A stretch of DNA of 64,000 nt from Microbacterium sp. LWS13-1.2 (GTDB taxonomy: Bacteria; Actinomycetota; Actinomycetes; Actinomycetales; Microbacteriaceae): assembly GCF_040144835.1 (NCBI RefSeq), contig NZ_CP151632.1, positions 3,596,001-3,660,000 on the forward strand, read 5' to 3'. A program made the translations under genes and the position numbers. Numbering within the stretch: the stretch's first letter is position 1; every line of letters begins with the position of its first letter. The notes below the pieces were generated by a model, which had not been told where the DNA came from, did no database searches, and saw only the letters and a program-made list of their open reading frames with translations. Below are positions 35,208 through 46,713 of the stretch, piece by piece.

Positions 35208-35370
35208 CCGCCGAGCCTACGGGGGTACCCCGGGCTGCATCCCCGAAACCCCCACCGGATCCCCCTCTGCGGAGGGGGGAAGTGCGGGGAACCTCCGGAT
35301 GTGGCGGCGACCGCCCGGGCAGAGACTCTTCATACACCGCCACCCTGGCTCAGCGAGAAAAGGATCAATC
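35208..35370. promoter_or_regulatory. Promoter region of the IniB-like gene
   Basis: The 163-bp spacer holds GCATCCCCGAAACCCCC (35237-35253), which closely resembles a motif before the second IniB-like gene. It also has a C-rich/G-rich palindrome (CCCCCTC TGCG GAGGGGG, near 35262-35279) and a weak -10-like CATACA near 35331. A ribosome site AAAAGGA precedes the ATG. The two motifs are candidate sites for the LuxR-type regulator encoded at 41669-44218. Confidence 0.45.
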
Positions 35371-36516
35371 ATGGCTGACGACAACACCAACGTGCTGGGT
35401 GTTCAGACGAACATCGAAGACGTCCTCTCCAACAACGAGGTCGGGAACACCGACGTCGAGGTCGAGGACAACGTTGTCGGCAACGACGGAAACGTGGTCG
35501 GCAACGACACGGACGTCGATGTCGAGGACAACAACGTCAACAGCGCGGTCGGCAACGACGACAACATCGTGGACAGCGCCGTCGGCAACGACATCGCTTC
35601 CGACAACGAGATCGGCAACACCGACGTCGACGTCGAGGACTCCGGCAACGGCAACTTCTCCGACAACGTGGGTGGCGACGCCACCGACATCGACGACTCC
35701 GGCAACGGTAACTTCTCGGGCAACACCGACAACTCCGACAACTCCGACAACTCGACCAACAACGCCGCTGTCGGCGTGGGCAACCAGTCGGACAACTCGG
35801 ACAACTCGGTCGAGAACGAGCTCGAGGTCGACGTCGAGATCGAGGACTCGTTCAACGACAACTCGGACAACTCGACGGACGACAACCGCGACATCGAGGA
35901 CGCCTACAACAGCTACACGGACTCGTTCAACGAGACCACGCTGAACGACGACTCGGTCACCGTGGGTGTGCGCCAGTACAACACCGGTGTCGGCGGCGAC
36001 CTCAACATCGGCGGCGTTCTGGGTGGCGGCGCTGCTGCCGCGGCGGCTGGTGCTGCCGGTGCACTGAGCCTCGAGCTCGACAACCGCGCTCAGGTCGTCG
36101 ACCAGTCGGTCAACCAGTCCTTCGGCTTCGTCGACGGCGACGTCGAGCAGGACTTCGACCAGGAGGCCGTCGCCAACTCCGGTGACAACGGCGCTGCGGC
36201 CGGCGACGACGCCGACGTCGACAACTCGTGGACCAACACCGAGGTCGGCGACATCTCGATCGGCAACACCTGGATCGAGACGCACATCAGCGACTCCTTC
36301 CAGGACAACTCGACCAACGAGTGGAACGAGTTCGAGGTCGAGATCGACGACTCGTTCAACGACTACTCCGACCACACCAACGTCGAGGTCGAGATCGAGG
36401 ACGCCTTCAACGAGGAGTTCAACACCGAGGTCGAGAACGACTTCGAATGGGAGAACAGCGGCAACTTCTTCAGCCCGGGTGGGGACGTCGCAGGCGACGA
36501 CCTCATCGATCTCTGA
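35371..36516 (+). CDS. IniB-like Asn/Asp-rich repetitive protein (first copy)
   Basis: A 381-residue, very acidic protein with no signal peptide. Residues 1-200 consist of short repeats of the kind VGNDxxV, DVDVEDN, SGNGNFS and DNSDNS. A Gly/Ala segment (GGVLGGGAAAAAAGAAGAL) follows at about 214-233. The core LDNRAQVVDQSVNQ, FDQEAVANSGDNGAAAGDDA and VGDISIGN is shared almost word for word with the second copy at 40801. The N-terminal IniB domain seen in that second copy is missing here. In mycobacteria iniB precedes the dynamin genes iniA and iniC, as here. Function is unknown; repeats may form a beta-helix or bind cations. Confidence 0.75.
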   Translation: MADDNTNVLGVQTNIEDVLSNNEVGNTDVEVEDNVVGNDGNVVGNDTDVDVEDNNVNSAVGNDDNIVDSAVGNDIASDNEIGNTDVDVEDSGNGNFSDNVGGDATDIDDSGNGNFSGNTDNSDNSDNSTNNAAVGVGNQSDNSDNSVENELEVDVEIEDSFNDNSDNSTDDNRDIEDAYNSYTDSFNETTLNDDSVTVGVRQYNTGVGGDLNIGGVLGGGAAAAAAGAAGALSLELDNRAQVVDQSVNQSFGFVDGDVEQDFDQEAVANSGDNGAAAGDDADVDNSWTNTEVGDISIGNTWIETHISDSFQDNSTNEWNEFEVEIDDSFNDYSDHTNVEVEIEDAFNEEFNTEVENDFEWENSGNFFSPGGDVAGDDLIDL

Positions 36517-36528
36517 TCCCTCTCAAGC

Positions 36529-36564
36529 CTTGCCCGGTCGCCTCTGAAGAGGCGGCCGGGCAAG
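36529..36564 (+). terminator. Hairpin between the IniB-like and IniA-like genes
   Basis: A 16-bp stem with one T-G wobble (CTTGCCCGGTCGCCTC with 36549-36564) and a TGAA tetraloop lie 12 bp after the stop. Only a weak A/T-rich tail follows. It likely lowers read-through, so the IniB-like protein is made in excess of the GTPases. Confidence 0.7.
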
Positions 36565-36662
36565 ACCAATTTACGATGCGGATCGACCGCCCGGTCCGCA
36601 ACCCCCGAGGTCGCTCCGATGCCGTAGCGTGATACGGGGGAGATGCGTCGAGGGGGACTCAG

Positions 36663-38558
36663 GTGTCTGAAGCTGTAGCCGTCAAGAAGCCGAGCCGGGA
36701 GGATGCCGAGCCGGCGGCGCCGTCCGCGGTGGAGCGTTCGTCGAGCAAGGCGCTCGTCACGATCGTTGACAACGTCGGTCAGCTCGCCTCATCGACGGGG
36801 CGCACAGACCTGGCGCGGCGTCTGGAGCACACCCACGAACGACTGCAGGACCCCAACGTGCGGGTCATCGTCGTCGGCGAGTTCAAGCAGGGCAAGAGCA
36901 AGCTCATCAACGCCCTCGTGAACGCCCCGGTGTGCCCCGTCGACGATGACGTGGCGACGAGCGTGCCGACCTCGGTCGGCTATGCCGCGACCCCCGATGC
37001 ATGGGTGACCCTGCAGTCCGCGAATGAGTCCGAGGCGCCGGTCCGTCAGCAGATCGCGCTGGAGGACATCGCACAGTTCGTGTCGGAGCGCGGCAATCCC
37101 GCCAATGAGCGCAGAGTCGTCGCCGCCGAGGTCGTGCTTCCCCGCGAGCTGCTCAAGGGCGGACTGCGACTGGTGGACTCGCCCGGTGTCGGAGGCCTCG
37201 ACTCGACGAACGCCCTCGCCACTCTGGCGGCGCTGTCATCTGCGCATGCGGTCCTGCTGGTGTCCGATGCCTCGCAGGAGTACACCGAGCCCGAGGTGCA
37301 GTTCCTCAAGCACGCCATGCGCGTGTCGCCGAACGTGGCCGCCGTGCTCGCCAAGACCGACATGTATCCCCAGTGGCGCGACATCGAGCGCATCGATCGC
37401 GCGCATCTCGGCGACCTCGGGGACGTCCCGATCTTCGCGGTCTCCAGCGATCTGCGCCTCATCGCCGCCGAGGAGCAGGACCGCGAGCTCAACAGCGAGT
37501 CCGGATTCCCCGCGCTCGTGGCGCACCTCCGGCAGGAGGTGCTCGGCCGTGCGGAGATCATCCACGCGCGCAGCGCCGTGCATGATCTGGTGTCGGTGGT
37601 CGAGCAGCTGAAGATGTCGCTCACCTCCGAGCTCGAGGCGATCCTCCACCCGGAGAACACCCCGAGGCTCATCGCGCAGCTCGAAGATGCGAAGGCGCGC
37701 GCCGACGAGTTCCGCGGTCGCTCGTCCAAATGGCAGATCACCCTGAACGACGGCGTCGCCGACCTCATCTCGGACATGGAGCACGACCTCCGTGACCGGC
37801 TCCGCAAGGTGCAGCGTGAGGCCGAGGATGCGATCGACGAGGGCGACCCCGGCCCCATCTGGGACCAGATCACCGAATGGCTCGACCAGCGCGTGTCGGC
37901 GGCAGTCTCGGAGACGTTCGTGTGGACCGACGAGCGCTCACGGTGGCTGTCGGAAGAGGTCGCGGAGCTGTTCAGCGAAGGTGAAGCGGGCCTCCCGCTC
38001 ATCGACGTGGGCGACACCGAAGGCGTGCTGGACCCGGTCGAGGGTCTGTCCGACCTCGGCCATCGTCAGATGGGCGCGGCCGAGAAGATCTTCATCGGCG
38101 TCCGCGGCTCGTATGGCGGCGTGCTCATGGTGGGCCTCGCGACCGGCCTCATCGGCCTGACCCTCATCAACCCGCTCTCGCTCCTCGCCGGCGTCCTCGT
38201 CGGCCGCCGCGCCTATCGCGAAGACATGAGCTCGCGGTTGTCCCGCCGGCGGTTCGAGGCGAAGTCGCTCGTCCGCAAGTACCTCGATGAGGTGCAGTTC
38301 CAGGTGGGCAAGCAGCTGAAAGACCGCCTGCGGCTCGTCCAGCGGGCGGCGCGCGACCACTTCGGCAGCATGGCCGACGAGATCCACCGCTCGTTGTCCG
38401 ATGCGATGCTCGCCGCCAAGCAGGCGGCCGGCACCTATGCCGGAGAGAGCGAGAAGCGGGTGAAGGAGCTGAACGCCCAGGTGCAGCAGCTCGAGGCACT
38501 CCGGGCCAAGATCCCCGCACTGCCCCCGGCGCGGGCCGTGGAGGCGGCGAAGCGGTGA
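36663..38558 (+). CDS. Dynamin-like GTPase, IniA type
   Basis: A 631-residue bacterial dynamin. G1 is GEFKQGKSK at 72-80, the switch region contains DDDVATSVPTSVGY, G3 is DSPGVGG near 171, and G4 is AKTD. Long helical stalk segments follow. A hydrophobic hairpin at about 483-512 (MVGLATGLIGLTLINPLSLL) would insert in the membrane as the paddle. A C-terminal coiled coil ends the protein. Mycobacterial IniA mediates membrane fission and is induced by cell-wall drugs; the same role is inferred here. GTG 36663 has GAGGGGG upstream. Its stop overlaps the start of the second dynamin (GTGA at 38555), so the two are made together. Confidence 0.88.
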   Translation: MSEAVAVKKPSREDAEPAAPSAVERSSSKALVTIVDNVGQLASSTGRTDLARRLEHTHERLQDPNVRVIVVGEFKQGKSKLINALVNAPVCPVDDDVATSVPTSVGYAATPDAWVTLQSANESEAPVRQQIALEDIAQFVSERGNPANERRVVAAEVVLPRELLKGGLRLVDSPGVGGLDSTNALATLAALSSAHAVLLVSDASQEYTEPEVQFLKHAMRVSPNVAAVLAKTDMYPQWRDIERIDRAHLGDLGDVPIFAVSSDLRLIAAEEQDRELNSESGFPALVAHLRQEVLGRAEIIHARSAVHDLVSVVEQLKMSLTSELEAILHPENTPRLIAQLEDAKARADEFRGRSSKWQITLNDGVADLISDMEHDLRDRLRKVQREAEDAIDEGDPGPIWDQITEWLDQRVSAAVSETFVWTDERSRWLSEEVAELFSEGEAGLPLIDVGDTEGVLDPVEGLSDLGHRQMGAAEKIFIGVRGSYGGVLMVGLATGLIGLTLINPLSLLAGVLVGRRAYREDMSSRLSRRRFEAKSLVRKYLDEVQFQVGKQLKDRLRLVQRAARDHFGSMADEIHRSLSDAMLAAKQAAGTYAGESEKRVKELNAQVQQLEALRAKIPALPPARAVEAAKR

Positions 38559-40111
38559 GGACCACCACCCAAGACGATACGGCCGCCCTCATCCGCGCCG
38601 CATCGGAGCTCTATATCGACGACCCTGCGGCGATGGACGTGCTGTCCGACCTGGATCGGCGGCTCCGGGAGCCGCTGCGCGTGGCCATCGCGGGAATGGT
38701 GAAAGCCGGGAAGTCCACACTCCTGAACGCGATGCTGGGCGAGCGGCTCGCGCCGACCGACGCCGGCGAGTGCACCCGGGTGGTCACGTGGTACCGGTAC
38801 TCGGCGACGCCCACCATCACGCTCCACCCCCACGACGGGCCGCCGCGGCGCATGCCGATCCATCGCGAGGAGGGTCGCCTCGTCCTCGAGCTCGGAGACA
38901 TCTCGCCGGACGAGACGGCGTGGATCGATGTGGGGTGGCCGTCGACCGGGCTGCGCAATCTCATCCTCATCGACACGCCGGGCATCGCATCGCTCTCGAA
39001 GGACGTCTCGGCGCGCTCCACGGACTTCCTCGTTCCCGAGACCGAGCCGTCTTCGGCCGACGCGATCGTGTACCTCATGCGCCATATGCACGCGTCCGAC
39101 CTCAAGTTCCTGGAGTCTTTCCGCGACACCGCCGCAGGAGCTTCACAGACGGTCAACGCCGTGGCCGTGCTGTCGCGTGCCGACGAGATCGGCGCCGGCC
39201 GCATCGACTCCCTGCTGTCGGCCGGCAAGGTCGCACGGCGCTACGAGAAGGACGGCGAGCTTGCGGCGCTGTCGCTCGGAGTGGTCCCGGTCGCCGGACT
39301 GCTCGCCGAGAGCGCACGGACGATGCGCGAGGACGAGTTCACCTCTTTCCAGGAGCTGGCCTCCCTCGAGCGCAAGGCACGAGAGGCGCTCATGGTCTCT
39401 GCCGATCGGTTCGCGCGACCCGCGGAATCCACGTCGCTGAGCGAGGAGGTTCGCCGTCAGCTCCTGAGCCGCTTCGGCATCTTCGGCGTACGTCTCGCGA
39501 GCGCTCTCATCCGCACCGGCGCCACCGACTCCACACAGCTGTCGGAGCAGCTCGTGCAGCAGAGCGGGCTCAACGAGCTCCAGCAGTTCATCCGGCTGCA
39601 GTTCCGTACGCGAGCGGCGGCGCTCAAAATAAGGGGCGTGCTCGACGCTCTCCAGACGCTCCTGCGCGACAGCCCGCGACCCGGCACCGAGACGATCGTC
39701 GGGGGAGTGGAGCGGATCTACGCCTCCGCGCACACGCTGCGCGAGCTGTCGCTCCTGGCGCGCGCACGATCGTCCGATCTGCCGTTGAGCCGGTCCGACG
39801 CCACCGAGGCGGAGCGGATCATCGGAGGTGAGGGCCCGTCCGCATCGGCCCGCCTCGGGCTTCCCGATTCGGCGACGCAGCCAGAGCTGCGCGACAAGGT
39901 CGAGGAGCTGCTGGCGCGCTGGCGGAGGCTCAGCGCGTCTCCGATCGCGGAACGGGCGACGGTCGAGGTCGCCCGTCAAGTGATCCGCAGCCTCGAGGAG
40001 GTGGCGTCAGAAGTCGCCCTCTCCGCCCCCGGCCCGACGGACGTCGTACTTGCGGGCGGTCCATTGCAGAGCGCCCCGGAACGAGCTGAAGAGGAGCGCG
40101 AGGAGGGCTAG
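38555..40111 (+). CDS. Dynamin-like GTPase, IniC type
   Basis: A 518-residue partner dynamin. G1 is GMVKAGKST at 47-55, then the switch segment APTDAGECTRVVTWYRY, G3 DTPGIASL near 139 and G4 LSRADE. It lacks the obvious hydrophobic paddle of the upstream protein, as for IniC-type partners, so it may bind the membrane through a heteromer. It overlaps the upstream gene by 4 bp. The last 105 bp overlap the 3' end of the opposing membrane-protein gene (40007-40792). Confidence 0.87.
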   Translation: MRTTTQDDTAALIRAASELYIDDPAAMDVLSDLDRRLREPLRVAIAGMVKAGKSTLLNAMLGERLAPTDAGECTRVVTWYRYSATPTITLHPHDGPPRRMPIHREEGRLVLELGDISPDETAWIDVGWPSTGLRNLILIDTPGIASLSKDVSARSTDFLVPETEPSSADAIVYLMRHMHASDLKFLESFRDTAAGASQTVNAVAVLSRADEIGAGRIDSLLSAGKVARRYEKDGELAALSLGVVPVAGLLAESARTMREDEFTSFQELASLERKAREALMVSADRFARPAESTSLSEEVRRQLLSRFGIFGVRLASALIRTGATDSTQLSEQLVQQSGLNELQQFIRLQFRTRAAALKIRGVLDALQTLLRDSPRPGTETIVGGVERIYASAHTLRELSLLARARSSDLPLSRSDATEAERIIGGEGPSASARLGLPDSATQPELRDKVEELLARWRRLSASPIAERATVEVARQVIRSLEEVASEVALSAPGPTDVVLAGGPLQSAPERAEEEREEG

Positions 40112-40792
40112 CGACCACTGTGCGAAGAGCACCTGGCGAAGAACCGGGCCGTGCTCACCCGTGGCGAAGAATTCGGACGACAGCAGAAAGAGCCCGATCT
40201 GTCCCACCACCGTCGCGAGCTGCCACCACCGGGCATTCGGCTTGCGATTCGAGAACGACACCAGCAGCACGATCTGGATCAGCAGTAGGGTGACTGCCAC
40301 GGCGAAGACGGACCAGAAGAGGATGTCGGCGGCAGCCGTGTACGTCTCCTCGCTGCGCCCCTCCGCGACGCCCTTCACGACCTCCGTGATGAGCGGTACC
40401 TGGTCTTCGCGGATCACGAAGAGGTAGACGACCGCGACGCCACCGGCGAGAAGGCTCAGCACCCACAGGAGCTGACTGAGGCGCACCGTGAACGGCGGCG
40501 GACGCTTCGTCAGAACGGGCGCGACGTTCGGGCTCGCCGTCGGCGGACGCTCCGGCGCTTCACGCCGCTCTCGCGATGGAGGTGGAGGTGGCGGAGTCCG
40601 GTCGCGTGAGGGGCTCGACTGGGGGGCCACCACCTCGGAGGCAGGCACCTTCGCCACCGGCACGCGACCGATCGCCGTGCCGGTCGGCGGCGCCGTATCT
40701 CCGAAGCTCGGCGGCTGAGGCTTCGGGCGCGCGCTCGCGCGCCTTGGGTGTGCCAAGGCGCGCGAGCGGTCGTCGTCTTCCGTATCGGTCAC
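40007..40792 (-). CDS. Multi-pass membrane protein of the Ini-like locus
   Basis: A 261-residue protein not matched to a named family. Residues 1-105 are basic, Pro-rich and disordered (TPPPPPPSRERREAPERPP). Four hydrophobic helices follow: LSQLLWVLSLLAGGVAVVYL, then FWSVFAVAVTLLLIQIVLLV, LATVVGQIGLFLLSSEFF, and WSLALLALLFSSF. A basic C-terminus (WTARKYDVRRAGG) ends it. It starts with GTG at 40792, 8 bp after the second IniB-like gene, so the two are co-translated. Its tail overlaps the IniC-type gene by 105 bp. A role as membrane platform for the IniB-like protein or the dynamins is inference. Confidence 0.75.
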   Translation of the reverse strand: MTDTEDDDRSRALAHPRRASARPKPQPPSFGDTAPPTGTAIGRVPVAKVPASEVVAPQSSPSRDRTPPPPPPSRERREAPERPPTASPNVAPVLTKRPPPFTVRLSQLLWVLSLLAGGVAVVYLFVIREDQVPLITEVVKGVAEGRSEETYTAAADILFWSVFAVAVTLLLIQIVLLVSFSNRKPNARWWQLATVVGQIGLFLLSSEFFATGEHGPVLRQVLFAQWSLALLALLFSSFRGALQWTARKYDVRRAGGGEGDF

Positions 40793-40800
40793 GTCGGGCC

Positions 40801-41544
40801 TCAGAAGTCCTCCTCGGACTCCGGCTCGATGTAAGTCTCGTCGATGGAGATGGCCGTCGCGTCGTCGGACTCGTAGTTGCCCTCGTTCGACACGTCGACG
40901 TCGGTCGCCGTCTCGGTCGTGGTGGTGTCGTTGAACGACTCCTCCACCTCGACATCGACCGCCACATCCGTGGAGTTGTCGTTGACGGAGTCTTCGACGC
41001 CGACCTCGATGTCGGTCTCGGTGTTGGTCGAACCGTCATTGAACGAGCCGTCGATGTTCGTCGTCGTGTCCTCGTTGCCGATGCTGACATCGCCGACGGT
41101 CGTCGTGTCGTTCGAGTTGTCGACGGTGGCGTCCTCGCCGGCGGCGGCGCCGTTGTCGCCGCTGTTGACCACAGCCTCCTGGTCGAAGATCTGGTTGACG
41201 TCGCCGTCCGCCCAGATGTTCTGGTTGACCGACTGGTCGACGATGGTCGCTCGGTTGTCGATCGAGAAGGACTGGGTGATGTTCGTGATCTCCTTCTCCA
41301 CGGTCGTCGGCTTCGGAGGTCCGGGAGGGGCCGGCGGTCCCGCCGGCTTCGGATACACGTCGGGACGGTCCACGATGACCGGCGCGACGGCCCGGACGTC
41401 GTCGACGCACGCGTCACTGAGCCCATTGCGGGCGAGCGTGCCCTGCGGGTCCTCCTCGAACTCCGCGGCTGCCGCGGGGTCATTGAGCAGACTGAGGATG
41501 AACTCGATCAGTGCATCGGCGATTGTTGCGAGCGGTGTTGTCAT
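40801..41544 (-). CDS. IniB N-terminal domain protein (second IniB-like copy)
   Basis: A 247-residue acidic protein. Residues 8-50 (ALIEFILSLLNDPAAAAEFE then EDPQGTLARNGLSD) match the IniB N-terminal helical domain. A Pro-rich linker leads to the core IDNRATIVDQSVNQ, FDQEAVVNSGDNGAAAGEDA and VGDVSIGN, which is shared with the protein at 35371. The remainder is Asp/Asn/Thr-rich repeats ending in an acidic tail (EPESEEDF). No signal peptide is present. It follows the LuxR-type regulator after 124 bp with its own likely promoter. Function is unknown. Confidence 0.85.
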   Translation of the reverse strand: MTTPLATIADALIEFILSLLNDPAAAAEFEEDPQGTLARNGLSDACVDDVRAVAPVIVDRPDVYPKPAGPPAPPGPPKPTTVEKEITNITQSFSIDNRATIVDQSVNQNIWADGDVNQIFDQEAVVNSGDNGAAAGEDATVDNSNDTTTVGDVSIGNEDTTTNIDGSFNDGSTNTETDIEVGVEDSVNDNSTDVAVDVEVEESFNDTTTTETATDVDVSNEGNYESDDATAISIDETYIEPESEEDF

Positions 41545-41605
41545 GTCTCGGCTCCTGTCACTTCGAGGCTCATTCTCGAGAGTAGGTGGTTGGTGTGTTC
41601 GGTGA

Positions 41606-41623
41606 ATCGGGGGTTTCCCCGAT
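41606..41623. promoter_or_regulatory. Candidate operator before the second IniB-like gene
   Basis: ATCGGGGGTTTCCCCGAT is an inverted repeat of two 7-bp arms around GTTT, lying 62 bp before the IniB-like ATG. Read on the minus strand, GCATCGGGGAAACCCCC matches GCATCCCCGAAACCCCC before the first IniB-like gene at 14 of 17 positions. A shared regulator, plausibly the adjacent LuxR-type protein, is inferred. Confidence 0.5.
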
Positions 41624-41668
41624 GCGGATGGGGGACGGCACGGGGATCTGCGCGGGCAGGCGAGGGCA

Positions 41669-44218
41669 TCAGGTGTCCCCGTCCGCGGAAGGGCCGCTCG
41701 GGCTCAGCGCGACACGCAGTTTGGCGATCAGATCCGAGCGCGACGTCGCTCCGAGTCGGCGCCGGATGCTCGCGATGTGATGCTCGGCCGTGCGCGGCGA
41801 GATGAAGATCGTCTCGCCGATCTCGGCGTACGTCTTGCCCTGCACGACCAGTCGCGCGACATCCGTCTCGCGCTCACTGAGTCCAGCGGCCGCGCTCGCG
41901 CGGGATGCCGGGGAGCTCTCCGCCGACGCATCGGTCGCGCGGGTCTCCTGCGGGTGCAGTTCGCGCGCGCACGCGAGCAGGCGGGCCGAGACCTTTCGGT
42001 CGTCCGAGCGGTTGGCGCCGTGTCGCGCGAGACGTGCGGCGTCCCACCGCAGCCCGATGGCGCCGAGCCCCTGGGCCGAGGCTTCGACGGCGTCGGCGTC
42101 CACCGTCCCGGCGAGAACCGACGTCCAGAGGCGCCCGGCGGTGGCCATCGTCGCCGCGACGCGGCTGCCGGGCGCGGCGTCGACGAGCGCGTGCGCGTGC
42201 GGGCCGAGGTAGTCGGGGTGGTCCAGCAGGATCCCGCGCTGAATGCCGGCCCACCGCAGGTGCGCGGCCCAGAGCGGCGGCGAACCCAGCGACTCCACGA
42301 TGTGCAAGGCCTGCGCGAACAGCGGCTGCGTCGCCGACTCGTCACCGACGCGTGCAGCGGCGGTCACGAGTTCCGCGACCGGCAGCAGAGTGTAGAGGTC
42401 GACGTCGGCGTCCAGCAGGCTGTCGCGCCCGGACTCCCATGCTTCGGCGAGGCCTGCGGCATCCTCGTACCGTCGCGCGAGGCCGACGCGGATGGCGTGC
42501 GCCAGCAGGTCGTCCCGCGGTACCGGCGTCGGTGCGAGGGCGAGGGCGGCATCGAGGTCCTCGCGCGCCTTCCCGCCCTGAGCGAGACCGAGTGCGATCC
42601 ACGCGCGCCAGAGCAGCAGCCGGGAGAGCATCCATGGTGTTCCCGTGTGACCCTCGATGGCCGCGTCGATGACGGATCGCGCCGTCGAGAGGTCGCCGGA
42701 GCTGATCGCGGCGACCGCGGCGATCACGGCGGGAAGCTCCGGCATGGGTGCCGAGGACCGGGACGCGGTGTACAGGTGGGATCCGCGAACGAGGTCGGCG
42801 AGCGCGGTGTCCGCCTGGTCTGCCCGCATCGATGCACGCAGACCTCGCTGGACGAGCTTCATCGCAACGGTGAGGGTCGAGGGCGCCGCGAGCGCGGCCG
42901 TCGCCGTCTTGCTCTCGTCATCCTGCGCGCGAGGATCCCCGACGCCGATCCGGGTGATGTACTCGCGAGCGGATGCCTCGGCCGACGCGGGAGGGAGCAC
43001 GTCGTAGACGGTGCACCCGGTCTGCAGCATCCCACGCATCGACCAGGTCGCCGCGGCGACATCGGCGAGCCGGGCGTCCACGGCGGCGTCGCGCTCGCCG
43101 GACGCCATGGCCTCATCGATGAGATGCGCGGCGCCGTCGACGTCTCCGGTCGCCCAGGCCACCTGCGCCCGCCTCGCATGTAGGTCGGCCGACGAGGTCC
43201 CCGCCTCGGCGGCGGCGCGGTAGAAGCTGCCGGCGCGCACCGGATCCGCGTCGATCAACTGGTCCCCGCGTTCGACGAGCGCAGCCGCCAGACGAGGGTC
43301 GGACACGTCCGACAGCCAGTCGGTTCCGTGCGGGGCTGCCGGGTCGACACCCCCGGGATGGGTCGTCAGTAGTTCGACGAGCCGGCGGGTGGGAAGGGTT
43401 GCGCGGACGGCGGCGCGCACGACGGGCACCGGACGCCCGTTGCGCAGAAGCAGGCCGTCGGCGTATGCCTGGACGAGGATCCCGTCCGAGTCGCCCCGCA
43501 GCTCGGAGTCGAGCGGATTCTCCTCCGCCGCCGCCACACTGACCGCTTCGACCGCTCGTCTCACGTCCGTGTCGACCACCCCGAGGCGGTGTGCGACGCT
43601 CTGCTCGAGCACGCGACCGAGCGCAGAGTGGTCGATGTCGTCGGCGCAGTCCCTCTCGTCGTGTGCCGACAGTGCCGCCGACACGAGCCATGAGACGCCG
43701 CCGGTGATCTCGAGAATGTGATCCAGGCACGGCGCCGGGATGTCGCGACCGGTTCCCGCGAGGTAGTCCAGGACGTCCGAGCGCGTCACGTGTCCGAGGA
43801 CGACCGCCGGGCGGCTGCGCTCCAGGTGTCGTGCGATGCTCGCCAGCTGGTGCGAGCTCGGCCACGGCCTGCTCGTCACGACGAGCGCGGTGTCCGGATC
43901 CGCGGCCCGCGCGATGAGGCCCTCGATCTGCGCCGGCGGCAGCAGATGCAGATCGTCGACGAGCAGCACGCTGGCGGCGGGAACGCCCGTCACGTCGGTG
44001 TCGGGCCCGAGCAGGTGCAGCGGCACACGGTTGCGGGTGAGGAATCGCTGCGCGCCGCGCAGGATCGTCGACTTGCCCGATCCGGCGTTGCCCGAGATGA
44101 GCATGCGAGGCGGCGTGTCCTGTGTGGTGAGAGCGTCGATAAGAGGATGCGCGTGCCGCGATCCTGTGAAGTCGGCGGCGTCGAAGAACGTAGCCAGTAC
44201 GGCTGTCGGCGTTGACAT
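41669..44218 (-). CDS. Large AAA ATPase / LuxR-family regulator (IniR-like)
   Basis: An 849-residue signal-transducing regulator. The N-terminal ATPase has Walker A GNAGSGKST (43-51) and Walker B VLLVDDLHLL (84-93). A long helical repeat region (about 280-770, TPR/MalT-like) would sense a ligand or protein. The LuxR helix-turn-helix is at the C-terminus (LSERETDVARLVVQGKTYAE, then FISPRTAEHHIASIRRRLGA). Mycobacterial IniR, which controls iniBAC, has this same architecture and position near the operon. It follows the Hsp70-like gene after 24 bp and precedes the second IniB-like gene. The signal is unknown; IniR responds to trehalose-type sugars in mycobacteria. Confidence 0.85.
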   Translation of the reverse strand: MSTPTAVLATFFDAADFTGSRHAHPLIDALTTQDTPPRMLISGNAGSGKSTILRGAQRFLTRNRVPLHLLGPDTDVTGVPAASVLLVDDLHLLPPAQIEGLIARAADPDTALVVTSRPWPSSHQLASIARHLERSRPAVVLGHVTRSDVLDYLAGTGRDIPAPCLDHILEITGGVSWLVSAALSAHDERDCADDIDHSALGRVLEQSVAHRLGVVDTDVRRAVEAVSVAAAEENPLDSELRGDSDGILVQAYADGLLLRNGRPVPVVRAAVRATLPTRRLVELLTTHPGGVDPAAPHGTDWLSDVSDPRLAAALVERGDQLIDADPVRAGSFYRAAAEAGTSSADLHARRAQVAWATGDVDGAAHLIDEAMASGERDAAVDARLADVAAATWSMRGMLQTGCTVYDVLPPASAEASAREYITRIGVGDPRAQDDESKTATAALAAPSTLTVAMKLVQRGLRASMRADQADTALADLVRGSHLYTASRSSAPMPELPAVIAAVAAISSGDLSTARSVIDAAIEGHTGTPWMLSRLLLWRAWIALGLAQGGKAREDLDAALALAPTPVPRDDLLAHAIRVGLARRYEDAAGLAEAWESGRDSLLDADVDLYTLLPVAELVTAAARVGDESATQPLFAQALHIVESLGSPPLWAAHLRWAGIQRGILLDHPDYLGPHAHALVDAAPGSRVAATMATAGRLWTSVLAGTVDADAVEASAQGLGAIGLRWDAARLARHGANRSDDRKVSARLLACARELHPQETRATDASAESSPASRASAAAGLSERETDVARLVVQGKTYAEIGETIFISPRTAEHHIASIRRRLGATSRSDLIAKLRVALSPSGPSADGDT

Positions 44219-44242
44219 GAGATTCCCCAGGCGATCCCGGCG

Positions 44243-46138
44243 TCAGGGGACGATCTCGGGAGCGGGTGAGGTCTCAGGGGCCGGCTGCAGATCAGCGGGG
44301 ACCGGCTCGGGGTCGGCCGGTGGGGTCGTGGGCTCCGGCTCGGGGTCGGCCGGGGGAGTCGTGGGCTCCGGCTCGGGTTCGGGCTCCGGCTCCGGCGCTG
44401 GGTCCGGCTGGGTGGTCGGTTCCGGTTCCGGTTCCGGCTGCGTCGTCGGCTCGGGCTCCGGCTGGGTGGTCGGTTCGGGTTGCGGCTGCGTCGTCTGCCC
44501 CGGCGTGTCGTCGCCGCTCGACGTCGGCGTGGTGCCCGACGATCCGGCGGCCGGCTTCGTGGACGTGCCTTCCTTCGTCGTGGTAGTCGTGGTGGTCGAC
44601 TTGTTCGGCCCCGCCTTCGAGACGGGAGCGTCGCTCCGGGGGGTCGGCTTCCCGGCCTTCGGATTCGCTGTGCCGCCGCCCGACCCCTTGTCCGGCTCGG
44701 GTGCCGTCGCCGTCTCGGGGGCGTTCGTGTCACCGGCGGGCTCCACCTGCGCGGCGGCCTCGGCCTCGGCGTCGGGGTCGGCGGGTGCGGGAACCTGCTC
44801 CCAGCCCGACAGCGACAGGAAGGTGCCGCTGCCGTTGCCGAGCGTCATGGTGCTGCCGAAGACGATCGCGGCGGCGACGAGGGCCGCCGCGGCTGAGATG
44901 GCGATGTAGTGGCGCGCGCCGTGAGGCGACGATGCCGCGACGGGGGCGACCGGTGCCGCGAGCGCAGCGCCAGCCGGCACGAGGAGCTCCAGCCCGCCGG
45001 CCGAGGCGCCTTCGAAGACGACGAGTTCGCCCGGAGCGGCGATCTCGCGATCCATCGCGCGGATGAGCGCCGTGTGCGCCGCGCCGAGCGCGATGGACGC
45101 CTTCGGATCCGCGTCGATCGCGGTCGGGCGGTCCAGATGCTCGGAGATCCGCTGCGTGACCAGCGGGATCCGCGATGATCCGCCGATGAGCAGCACCGAC
45201 TCGAGCTGCTCGGGGTCGACCTCTGCCGCTTCGAGGGCATCCTCGAGCACGTCGACCGTCTGTGTGACGTACGGATCGATCATGTCCTCGAACTCGGCGC
45301 GCGTCAGCCGCACGCTCGAGCGGCCGGCCTGCAGCAGGACCGGGATGACGACGTCGGAGTCGAACGACAGCGCCTCTTTGGCGTCGACGCATTCGCGACG
45401 AAGCTGCGACAGCGCGACCCGCGCGTCGGCGGACGAGTCGTCCAGCGCCTCGGGGGAGACCTCCGCGGAGCGCAGCACGTGGCGCACGACGGCGTCGTCG
45501 AAGTCGGCCCCACCGAGATTGTCGAGTCCCATCGGCTCTCCGACGAGCTCGAACGAGGTCTCGGTCTTGCGCAGCAGCACGCAGTCGAACGTGCCGCCGC
45601 CCAGGTCGTAGACGGCGAGCGTCTCTCCGGGCTCGAGCACGCGCGACGCCTCGTAGTGCCGCGCCGCGGCTTCCGGCTCGGTGATGAACTCCACGTCGCG
45701 GATGCCGAGCGCGGCGAGCGCCGAGCTGATCGTTCCCACACGGTGCGGACCCCACATGGCAGGATGCGTGACGATGACACCTGCCGGCGCGCCACCCTCG
45801 CGTTCGGTCACCGCGTCGATGACGCCCGCCACGGTCTGCGCGTACAGCTGCTCGGCCGGGATCGACCGATCGCCCACGACCAGCGGCACGTCGTCGCCGA
45901 TGCTGCGCTTGAACTCGCGGATCAGTCGCTCGGGCGCGGTGACGCCGCGCCGTTCCGCCGCATCCCCGAAGAGGAGATCACCATCCTCGGCGACGAAGAC
46001 CACCGTCGCGACGCTGTCCGCACGTCGCCCGAGTGGAAACGCCGCAGCCGTGATGCTGCCGTCCGAAGCGACGCGCGCTGTCGCTGCCCCCAGCCTGCTG
46101 GTCCCGAGATCCACAGCCAGGAAATACCGCTCAGCCAT
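44243..46138 (-). CDS. Membrane-anchored Hsp70-type ATPase without substrate-binding domain
   Basis: A 631-residue protein. Residues 1-375 form an actin/Hsp70 nucleotide-binding domain: phosphate-1 loop YFLAVDLGTSRLGAA, then FITEPEAAARHYE, phosphate-2 loop AVYDLGGGTFDCVLL, and adenosine motif VLLIGGSSRIPLV. The DnaK beta-sandwich and lid are absent. Instead a membrane helix (about 411-433, YIAISAAAALVAAAIVFG) leads to ~200 residues rich in Thr, Pro and Glu with repeated TTQPEPEP units, predicted outside the cell. ATG 46138 is chosen over GTG 46156 because a GGGGG tract precedes it. It probably starts the minus-strand operon with the IniR-like gene. It could couple cytoplasmic ATPase state to envelope sensing. 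Confidence 0.85.
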   Translation of the reverse strand: MAERYFLAVDLGTSRLGAATARVASDGSITAAAFPLGRRADSVATVVFVAEDGDLLFGDAAERRGVTAPERLIREFKRSIGDDVPLVVGDRSIPAEQLYAQTVAGVIDAVTEREGGAPAGVIVTHPAMWGPHRVGTISSALAALGIRDVEFITEPEAAARHYEASRVLEPGETLAVYDLGGGTFDCVLLRKTETSFELVGEPMGLDNLGGADFDDAVVRHVLRSAEVSPEALDDSSADARVALSQLRRECVDAKEALSFDSDVVIPVLLQAGRSSVRLTRAEFEDMIDPYVTQTVDVLEDALEAAEVDPEQLESVLLIGGSSRIPLVTQRISEHLDRPTAIDADPKASIALGAAHTALIRAMDREIAAPGELVVFEGASAGGLELLVPAGAALAAPVAPVAASSPHGARHYIAISAAAALVAAAIVFGSTMTLGNGSGTFLSLSGWEQVPAPADPDAEAEAAAQVEPAGDTNAPETATAPEPDKGSGGGTANPKAGKPTPRSDAPVSKAGPNKSTTTTTTTKEGTSTKPAAGSSGTTPTSSGDDTPGQTTQPQPEPTTQPEPEPTTQPEPEPEPTTQPDPAPEPEPEPEPEPTTPPADPEPEPTTPPADPEPVPADLQPAPETSPAPEIVP

Positions 46139-46310
46139 GTTGAAGCATGCCCCCACATCGTGTGCGAGCTCCCCCGAACTCGCAGCGTTCTCACTCCCCA
46201 GAGAGTGAGCCGCTGCTGTGATGATACGCCGGGGCCCGACAAAGCCTCAAGAGCATGTAACAGTTGTGTTTCCGCCAGGTGTCTGCGACGCGCGCGGTAT
46301 GACGTCACGA

Positions 46311-46337
46311 TTGGCACTCACGTTGCATGAGTGCCAG
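46311..46337. promoter_or_regulatory. CIRCE-like element 1 (HrcA operator)
   Basis: TTGGCACTC, 9 bp, GAGTGCCAG. The arms match the CIRCE consensus (TTAGCACTC-N9-GAGTGCTAA) with one substitution per conserved half plus one end mismatch. It covers the -35 region (TTGCAT at 46323-46328) of the groES promoter. Confidence 0.75.
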
Positions 46338-46352
46338 ACCGTTGCCTAGACT
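46323..46352 (+). promoter_or_regulatory. groES promoter
   Basis: TTGCAT (46323-46328), an 18-bp spacer and TAGACT (46347-46352) place the transcription start near 46359, between and within the two CIRCE elements. HrcA bound at either site would block initiation; heat releases it. Confidence 0.6.
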
Positions 46353-46356
46353 GTCA

Positions 46357-46383
46357 TCAGCACTCTCAACGTCAGAGTGCTAA
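46357..46383. promoter_or_regulatory. CIRCE element 2 (HrcA operator)
   Basis: TCAGCACTC, 9 bp, GAGTGCTAA differs from the CIRCE consensus at one base. It begins at the predicted transcription start of groES and lies 34 bp before the GTG start codon. Confidence 0.92.
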
Positions 46384-46416
46384 CGAGTCTTAGTCTCAAG
46401 AAAGAAGAGGTAGACC

Positions 46417-46713
46417 GTGTCGGTTTCCATCAAGCCGCTCGAGGACCGCATCGTCATCAAGCAGGTCGAGGCCGAGCAGACCACGTCCAGCGGTCTGGTC
46501 ATCCCCGACACCGCCAAGGAGAAGCCCCAGGAGGGCGAGGTCGTGGCGGTGGGCCCGGGTCGTATCGACGACAACGGCAACCGCATCCCGCTCGACGTCG
46601 CCGTCGGCGACCGCGTGATCTACAGCAAGTACGGCGGCACCGAGGTGAAGTTCGGCGGTGACGAGCTCCTCGTCCTGTCGGCTCGCGACGTCCTGGCGGT
46701 CGTCGTTCGCTGA
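46417..46713 (+). CDS. groES: Co-chaperonin GroES
   Basis: A 98-residue heptameric lid of the GroEL chaperonin. The sequence has [14 protein letters not shown], the mobile loop [12 protein letters not shown], and [18 protein letters not shown] 46417 has GAAGAGG upstream. No groEL gene follows: a terminator comes 25 bp later, so groES is monocistronic and GroEL must be encoded elsewhere. Two CIRCE elements indicate HrcA control of the heat response. Confidence 0.97.

What the first reader, a model, noticed from the sequence alone, without database searches (positions are those of the whole stretch)
35371..46138. Ini-like dynamin locus with two IniB-like proteins, an IniR-like regulator and a membrane Hsp70
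Two facing operons build what looks like one system. Plus strand: IniB-like protein, IniA-type dynamin, IniC-type dynamin. Minus strand: Hsp70-type ATPase with a membrane helix, AAA/LuxR regulator, second IniB-like protein, four-helix membrane protein. Mycobacterial iniBAC responds to wall-active drugs, and IniA remodels membranes. Here the set is larger, with a second IniB, an anchored Hsp70 and a membrane partner, in a non-mycobacterial genus. A membrane-repair or envelope-stress machine is inferred.
Basis: partly seen in the sequence, partly recalled or inferred. Interest (0 to 1): 0.88.

Follow-up and report, generated by a model that had tools for sequence, protein, structure and literature searches.

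The report
Ini dynamin block with membrane Hsp70
A bacterium of the genus Microbacterium carries a compact seven-gene block that pairs two membrane-remodelling dynamins with a stress regulator and a membrane-anchored Hsp70-like protein; much the same block recurs in related bacteria and extends a cell-wall stress system known from mycobacteria.

Summary
All seven genes lie where stated (35371-46138, genus Microbacterium). DLP-A is a full-length IniA relative (PDB 6j72, E 1e-185), IniB2 carries the IniB N-terminal domain, and the regulator matches the IniR profile below its equivalog cut-off. The Hsp70-like protein is an ATPase domain without substrate-binding domain, then a membrane helix and a proline-rich tail. 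The block is inherited as a unit: in 198 genomes of the order, the 4TM protein and the IniB domain occur in the same 8 genomes, each time at this locus; flanking genes are hardly shared between layouts. Microbacterium's 'facing operons' fit one inversion of dlpA-dlpC-4TM plus an extra iniB. A G-run/C-run box with a -10-like hexamer at fixed spacing marks iniB promoters from mycobacteria-like genomes to Microbacterium, rarely hsp and not iniR or 4TM: a candidate IniR operator. 'Larger than in mycobacteria' is only partly right: two IniB genes and hsp near iniR occur there too (partly published). New here: widespread hsp-iniR coupling, the 4TM partner, ATPase-less IniRs in Arthrobacter, the shared box. 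Function in envelope repair remains inferred. New variant of a known kind.

The parts
35371..36516 (+). iniB1: acidic Asn/Asp/Ser-rich protein (381 aa, net charge -93) with the IniB core segment but no IniB N-terminal domain
   Evidence: (no family)
36663..38558 (+). dlpA: IniA-type dynamin-like GTPase (631 aa)
   Evidence: PDB 6j72 IniA E 1e-185 over profile positions 34-627
38555..40111 (+). dlpC: second dynamin-like GTPase in the IniC position (518 aa)
40007..40792 (-). tm4: membrane protein, disordered N-terminus then four long helices; predicted helix bundle (block pLDDT 89-98 for residues 101-250)
40801..41544 (-). iniB2: IniB N-terminal helical domain + proline linker + IniB core + acidic Asn/Asp/Ser-rich tail
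41669..44218 (-). iniR-like regulator with Walker A motif, TPR-like middle and LuxR HTH (849 aa)
44243..46138 (-). hsp: Hsp70-type ATPase domain (about residues 7-360), no substrate-binding domain, hydrophobic helix near 412, proline-rich C-tail (631 aa)
41606..41623 (-). palindrome ATCGGGGAAACCCCCGAT upstream of iniB2, only match to ATCGGGGN{3,5}CCCCGAT in the 4.33-Mb genome; candidate IniR operator
41579..41584 (-). putative -10 hexamer TACTCT of the iniB2 promoter, 20 nt after the box
   Evidence: sequence; spacing seen in relatives
35282..35301 (+). degenerate G-run/C-run site upstream of iniB1 (seen by eye; the trained matrix did not pick it)

Best explanation
This is a Micrococcales form of the Ini system: an IniR-switched envelope-stress response whose effectors are a dynamin pair. 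Shown: seven genes inherited as a block, with a conserved promoter box in front of iniB genes. Inferred, likely: IniR is the activator that binds this box array, as IniR binds upstream of iniBAC in mycobacteria, and switches on iniB1-dlpA-dlpC and iniB2-tm4. Inferred: the dynamin pair remodels or seals the cytoplasmic membrane when wall synthesis fails; the very acidic IniB proteins act as adaptor or scaffold; tm4 gives the dynamins a membrane platform. Inferred, less sure: hsp and iniR form a sensor pair. The Hsp70-like ATPase holds IniR at the membrane, its proline-rich tail reaches toward the wall, and damage or a nucleotide/trehalose signal releases IniR, much as the idle maltose transporter holds MalT.
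For: Orthology: IniA structure match, IniB_NTERM and IniR profile. Unit: co-occurrence; 27 of 27 IniR-profile genomes among 296 of the class also have an IniA-like gene; of 80 named loci hsp is in 69, iniR in 73, tm4 in 75, IniB in 78, dlpC in 80, and all missing hsp and iniR lie past a contig end; of 81 flanking families with two or more loci only 4 span both layouts, the largest in 14 loci, 13 of them layout 1; distance correlations 0.62-0.92 over 58 loci. Coupling: hsp upstream of iniR on the same strand in 91 of 107 iniR loci, gap within 60 nt in 86 of 90 measured. Operator: box CCCCTA[AG][CTG] in 260 bp before iniB in 20/20 mycobacteria-like, 37/45 layout-1, 8/14 other-class and 11/39 layout-2 promoters, versus 25/4140 random windows; -10-like hexamer 20-21 nt after a box end in 35/39 layout-2 and 18/20 mycobacteria-like promoters, against 1 of 440 upstream regions of hsp, iniR, dlpA and tm4 and 13/4140 random windows. 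Published for mycobacteria: IniR acts upstream of iniBAC and responds to trehalose, IniA membrane fission, MalT comparison.
Against: No expression or binding data exist here. The regulator scores 351 bits against the 750-bit equivalog cut-off. iniR and tm4 upstream regions have no box, hsp only rarely (0/45 layout 1, 3/38 layout 2, 3/16 g74), so co-induction of all seven is not supported. The strict Hsp70 phosphate-2 motif is missing in 42 of 116 hsp genes and no hsp of the 10 mycobacteria-like loci keeps both motifs tested, so ATPase gating cannot be universal. Hsp70-type genes also stay with dynamins where IniR is missing, which argues that hsp serves the dynamins as well or instead. 16 of 83 non-redundant hsp proteins show no hydrophobic segment after residue 360 by a simple scan, among them L038 of the same genus. 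In the window the iniB1 box is weak. DLP-A also matches the PADLOC LeoBC model at 66.7 bits.
Confidence: 0.66

Rival explanations
1. The Hsp70-like protein serves the dynamins, not IniR: it assembles, recycles or anchors the IniA/IniC filaments at damaged membrane, and its closeness to iniR is only operon economy.
For: An Hsp70-type gene accompanies the dynamin pair in loci without IniR: 3 of 5 fetched order-level ones (L045, L050, L051 yes; L052, L053 no) and 9 of 16 fetched class-level ones from genomes without IniR. hsp-dlpC distances correlate better (0.79) than hsp-iniR (0.62).
Against: Seven of those nine class-level hits (L224-L230) are distant (142-251 bits) and may be other Hsp70 kinds. 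Where IniR is present, hsp precedes iniR rather than the dynamins in 91 of 107 loci, and hsp rarely has the box that marks the dynamin operon.
Confidence: 0.35
2. The block is an anti-phage defence module: dynamins act at the membrane during infection, and IniR is a STAND-type sensor.
For: PADLOC LeoBC and LeoA models match DLP-A (66.7 and 48.8 bits) and, weakly, DLP-C; patchy presence (3 of 8 Microbacterium genomes in the order sample); the block appears to have moved into Phycicoccus.
Against: The match can be explained by the shared dynamin fold; the published mycobacterial counterpart is induced by wall inhibitors; groES lies next door. No defence scan of the flanks was run.
Confidence: 0.1
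3. Two neighbouring systems that only happen to face each other in this genome.
For: The box marks iniB promoters only, and the two halves are on opposite strands in Microbacterium.
Against: Arthrobacter, Agromyces and Naasia carry hsp-iniR-iniB-dlpA-dlpC co-directionally (38 of 73 named loci with iniR); tm4 and IniB-N are found in the same 8 of 198 genomes and only there.
Confidence: 0.04
4. Heat or protein-folding stress module: in Microbacterium hsp is divergent from groES with two CIRCE (HrcA) elements between them.
For: Two CIRCE matches at 46311-46337 (3 mismatches) and 46357-46383 (1 mismatch), none in 100 shuffles; groES at 46417-46713; 23 of 36 layout-2 loci share this.
Against: 0 of 44 layout-1 loci have it, so it may reflect the insertion site; the one hsp promoter-like match (46250-46221) lies off the CIRCE elements and is itself near chance (1 found, 0.5 expected).
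Confidence: 0.1

Closest known systems
Mycobacterial iniBAC-iniR locus with iniB* (Rv0340)
   Same: IniA full-length homology, second dynamin next to it, IniB N-domain protein beside an IniR-type regulator, box-bearing iniB promoters; the fetched mycobacteria-like loci also have two IniB-N genes and hsp
   Different: Gene order; IniB1 without N-terminal domain; tm4 convergent with dlpC; regulator below the NCBIfam equivalog cut-off
M. smegmatis dnaK-like gene next to iniR (Boot 2017, one sentence in the section read)
   Same: Hsp70-type gene adjacent to iniR
   Different: Boot places it downstream of iniR; here an NBD-TM-tail protein lies just upstream of iniR, an arrangement found in 91 of 107 iniR loci, and similar genes occur in dynamin loci without IniR
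E. coli MalT and the maltose transporter (MalT comparison also in Boot 2017; the box arrays and MalK holding are recalled)
   Same: STAND/LuxR activator, repeated G-rich boxes, possible membrane partner that holds it
   Different: No ABC transporter in the block; the proposed holder is an Hsp70-like ATPase; unproven
LeoABC bacterial dynamins
   Same: Dynamin fold; PADLOC model match
   Different: Here two dynamins with IniB, IniR-like, hsp and tm4 genes; other leo components not identified among the seven

Membership tests
iniBAC/IniR system | IniA dynamin, full length | tested here: met
   6j72 E 1e-185 over 34-627 of 631 profile positions
iniBAC/IniR system | second dynamin directly downstream (IniC position) | tested here: met
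   4-nt overlap, Dynamin_N 46.7 bits
iniBAC/IniR system | IniB N-terminal domain | tested here: met
   IniB2 71.1 bits over cut-off 40; IniB1 has none
iniBAC/IniR system | regulator over the NCBIfam IniR equivalog cut-off | tested here: not met
   351 of 750 bits; so called IniR-like, not IniR equivalog, and the locus a variant
iniBAC/IniR system | promoter box shared with mycobacteria-like iniB promoters | tested here: inconclusive
   clear across relatives; in the window strong for iniB2, weak for iniB1; binding not tested
iniBAC/IniR system | induction by wall-active drugs through the regulator | not testable with these tools
   needs expression data
Canonical Hsp70 chaperone | nucleotide-binding domain | tested here: met
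   HSP70 142.7 bits; DnaK alignment 7-355 with VYDLGGGTFD and motifs of the EP.AA and KR.IG type
Canonical Hsp70 chaperone | substrate-binding domain | tested here: not met
   best profile and chain matches end near residues 355-375 (one row at 405); hydrophobic helix and proline-rich tail follow
LeoABC defence dynamins | leo gene set | tested here: inconclusive
   LeoBC/LeoA models match both dynamins, none of the other five proteins; the models cannot tell dynamin kinds apart here

The most novel reading that the evidence does not exclude
A transmembrane Hsp70 without chaperone domain is the missing membrane sensor of the Ini stress response: coupled to iniR at gene level, it holds the activator at the membrane and releases it on wall damage, so that either its own or IniR's ATPase can serve as the nucleotide switch. 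This would be a new class of bacterial envelope-stress signalling, and it would not depend on mycolic acids.
Probability: 0.28. Interest if true: 0.82.

Novelty: new variant of a known kind. Interest (0 to 1): 0.62.

Why it matters
iniBAC has been described as the promoter most strongly induced by isoniazid and ethambutol (abstract), yet how the signal reaches IniR and what the proteins do is open. The comparison shows that the system is not tied to mycobacteria, names two little-studied partners (a membrane Hsp70-like ATPase and a 4TM protein), gives a candidate operator and points to other hosts in which each step can be tested.

Tried and rejected
Complementarity of ATPases: among 97 loci scored for both, IniR Walker A and Hsp70 motifs are both present in 27, only Walker A in 29, only Hsp70 in 34, neither in 7. 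Phylogenetically independent pairs give no support (7 starred pairs, median p 1), so this is only an idea.

First box guess: the exact string GAAACCC[CTA]C from the window is not conserved (iniBn 5 of 85, iniB1 4 of 48, hsp 1 of 86 regions); the conserved feature is the G-run/C-run box found afterwards.

Box specificity: ATCGGGGN{3,5}CCCCGAT occurs once in the own genome but in 36 of 99 genus genomes, several with the spacer AGGA or TCCT, against 2 of 99 with the reversed control. Whether those sites lie at ini loci was not checked.

The full count is 4 of 81.

Domain scans of 10, 10 and 10 selected neighbours of distant loci showed no common extra partner. Rfam and tRNA scans of the window gave nothing. 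Paper searches gave no listed entry, other than Boot 2017, that I recognised as describing an Hsp70 gene at a dynamin locus or a non-mycobacterial iniBAC locus; for some only the top 12-15 of 52, 7,643, 56 and 1,788 papers were listed.

Two pairs of loci are the same sequence fetched twice (L040/L112, L042/L121). In one search the iniR start nearest to the hsp stop was chosen, which favours short gaps. HMM score thresholds and the loose spacing pattern were mine. Of the 43 class genomes with DLP-A, G409 and G447 were not fetched, nor some second hits (G278, G330, G425); of 18 order genomes, G016 was not. That Microbacterium and Arthrobacter lack mycolic acids, the MalK-MalT holding model, CIRCE/HrcA and Hsp70 motif names are recalled.
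Full report
What is there. Plus strand: iniB1 (35371-36516), dlpA (36663-38558), dlpC (38555-40111). Minus strand: hsp (44243-46138), an iniR-like gene (41669-44218, 24 nt after hsp), iniB2 (40801-41544), tm4 (40007-40792). The two halves converge; tm4 and dlpC overlap at their ends. The genome is a single 4.33-Mb contig; its nearest named relative in the tree is Microbacterium psychrotolerans (97% identity over the joined dynamins).

Identity of the proteins. DLP-A matches the solved M. smegmatis IniA over nearly its whole length (6j72, E 1e-185); DLP-C matches dynamin GTPase domains. IniB2 has the IniB N-terminal domain over its cut-off; IniB1 has no family match but shares the core segment. 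The regulator fits the IniR profile in two stretches at 351 bits, below the 750-bit equivalog cut-off, and has a Walker A motif and a LuxR HTH. The Hsp70-like protein aligns with DnaK from residue 7 to 355, has no substrate-binding domain, then a hydrophobic helix and a Pro/Thr/Ser/Ala/Gly-rich tail. By a simple hydropathy scan 67 of 83 non-redundant relatives have a hydrophobic segment after residue 360 and 16 do not. One relative carries a beta-propeller in the tail position (L213) and others extra hydrophobic segments (L050, L051). The own genome has only two Hsp70 matches, DnaK-like and this one. tm4 is predicted with confidence as a bundle of four long helices; at most 7 of 37 relatives match any Pfam family at E 0.01 (DUF6264, best 4e-4).

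One unit. In 198 genomes of the order, IniR-like genes are in 13, IniA-like in 18, with 12 genomes in common; the exception, G073, has an IniR-like frame at an unrelated place (L044). tm4 and the IniB N-domain are each in 8 of 198 and these are the same 8 genomes, always at this locus. The other 4 of the 12 (G033, G049, G093, G163) have neither by these searches, though hsp and an acidic IniB-like frame lie in their loci. Across 296 genomes of the class, IniR is in 27 and IniA-like in 43, and all 27 are among the 43. Among 80 named loci collected by dynamin similarity alone, dlpC is in 80, IniB (either part) in 78, tm4 in 75, iniR in 73 and hsp in 69; every missing hsp and iniR lies beyond a contig end, and tm4 is not detected in 2 loci with long flanks (L103, L127). 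Flanking gene families reach at most 25 of 81 loci; of 81 families with two or more loci, 4 span both layouts, the largest with 13 layout-1 loci and 1 layout-2 locus. Distances of dlpA, dlpC, iniR and hsp correlate (rho 0.62-0.92, 58 loci; label shuffles up to 0.32).

How the facing operons arose. In Arthrobacter, Agromyces and Naasia the order is hsp-iniR-iniB-dlpA-dlpC with tm4 convergent (layout 1); in Microbacterium it is hsp-iniR-iniB2-tm4 facing iniB1-dlpA-dlpC (layout 2). One inversion of dlpA-dlpC-tm4 turns the first into the second; an IniB core upstream of dlpA is found in 26 of 35 layout-2 loci. On the tree the 40 Microbacterium-type rows (38 layout 2, 2 without iniR on the contig) are one clade (SH-aLRT 100) inside the co-directional group (quick search). 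Rows marked layout 2 outside that clade, such as mycobacteria-like ones, only share iniR opposite to dlpA. Phycicoccus elongatus and several Propionibacteriaceae MAGs sit inside the clade, which suggests transfer of the whole block or, for MAGs, misbinning. Tandem iniB copies elsewhere (L104) show that iniB duplicates.

Relation to mycobacteria. Boot 2017 (PMC5760070; [quoted passage not shown] smegmatis, IniR binding upstream of iniBAC, and trehalose as signal. The 10 fetched mycobacteria-like loci all have two IniB-N genes, iniR, dlpA, dlpC and at least one hsp. So the window is not a larger set in kind; tm4 and the N-less IniB1 are the additions. hsp precedes iniR on the same strand in 91 of 107 iniR loci. 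Of the 16 others, 5 are cut by the contig (L060, L064, L099, L120, L201) and one (L044) is unrelated; in the remaining 10 hsp lies elsewhere in the locus, and in 4 of these (L046, L047, L048, L214) iniR itself begins at the contig end.

Candidate operator. Upstream of iniB, G-run/C-run palindromes and CCCCTAAC/T repeats recur. A 24-bp matrix trained on 42 layout-1 iniB promoters scores 10 bits or more in 19 of 39 layout-2 iniB2 promoters and 14 of 32 3-kb stretches before layout-2 dlpA, but in 1 of 79 hsp, 0 of 80 iniR, 0 of 78 tm4 and 1 of 84 dlpA upstream regions; random 220-bp windows 14 of 980. The 3-kb stretches have a higher chance rate than those windows. The simple box gives 20/20 (g74), 37/45 (layout 1), 8/14 (other class) and 11/39 (layout 2) against 25/4140 random windows; hsp 0/45 in layout 1, 3/38 in layout 2, 3/16 in g74. 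A TAnnnT hexamer follows a box end at 20-21 nt in 35 of 39 layout-2 promoters, 18 of 20 mycobacteria-like ones, 23 of 45 layout-1 ones (15 more at 14-15 nt) and 5 of 14 other-class ones. With the same loose pattern, 1 of 440 upstream regions of hsp, iniR, dlpA and tm4 and 13 of 4140 random windows do. The window iniB2 site is the only match to the palindrome pattern in its genome; the window iniB1 site is weak and rests on inspection.

Regulator and Hsp70 variation. The Arthrobacter group has short IniRs without the ATPase domain: 17 of 20 Arthrobacter, 5 of 5 Pseudarthrobacter, 3 of 3 Paenarthrobacter loci; of 33 such IniRs in all, 31 have hsp upstream. Conversely the strict Hsp70 phosphate-2 motif is missing in 42 of 116 hsp genes, and no hsp of the 10 mycobacteria-like loci keeps both motifs tested. 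The window keeps both proteins' motifs. Neither ATPase is therefore needed everywhere, and independent pairs do not show a trade-off.

Mechanism. The best-supported chain is: wall damage, IniR activation, binding at the box, transcription of iniB with the dynamins (and in Microbacterium iniB2-tm4), then membrane remodelling. [quoted passage not shown] The place of hsp is open between an IniR holder (gene coupling) and a dynamin partner (presence in IniR-less loci). Verdict: real, one system, homologous to the Ini system, with further partners; function inferred.

Noticed in passing
window 46138-46713: groES (Cpn10, 123.4 bits) is divergent from hsp with two CIRCE-like elements (46311-46337, 46357-46383) between them; seen in 23 of 36 layout-2 loci and 0 of 44 layout-1 loci. 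Possible HrcA input to hsp-iniR in Microbacterium.
   Followed up: partly
L039, L040, L041, L042, L098, L119 and others: IniR homologs of the Arthrobacter group lack the N-terminal ATPase domain while keeping hsp upstream.
   Followed up: partly
L050:4664-18450 and L051:4001-15839: Dynamin pair and hsp without IniR lie next to contractile injection/baseplate-type genes (Phage_base_V in both; TIGR02243 in L050).
   Followed up: no
L213:2433-4892: hsp relative with an apparent beta-propeller (Vgb_lyase/YNCE-like) after the hydrophobic helix: a possible extracytoplasmic sensor domain.
   Followed up: no
L072: Contig labelled Planococcus sp. APC 4015 carries a Microbacterium-type block and falls among Microbacterium in the tree; probably contamination.
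   Followed up: partly
L045:5295-7991: Dynamin-hsp locus where a different AAA_16-LuxR regulator sits beside dlpC, as if IniR had been replaced.
   Followed up: no
G000:C1:459157-459258: A third Dynamin_N match elsewhere in the own genome, in a 583-aa frame.
   Followed up: no
genus sample: ATCGGGGAGGACCCCGAT or its complement recurs in several Microbacterium genomes, possibly at sites of another regulator.
   Followed up: no
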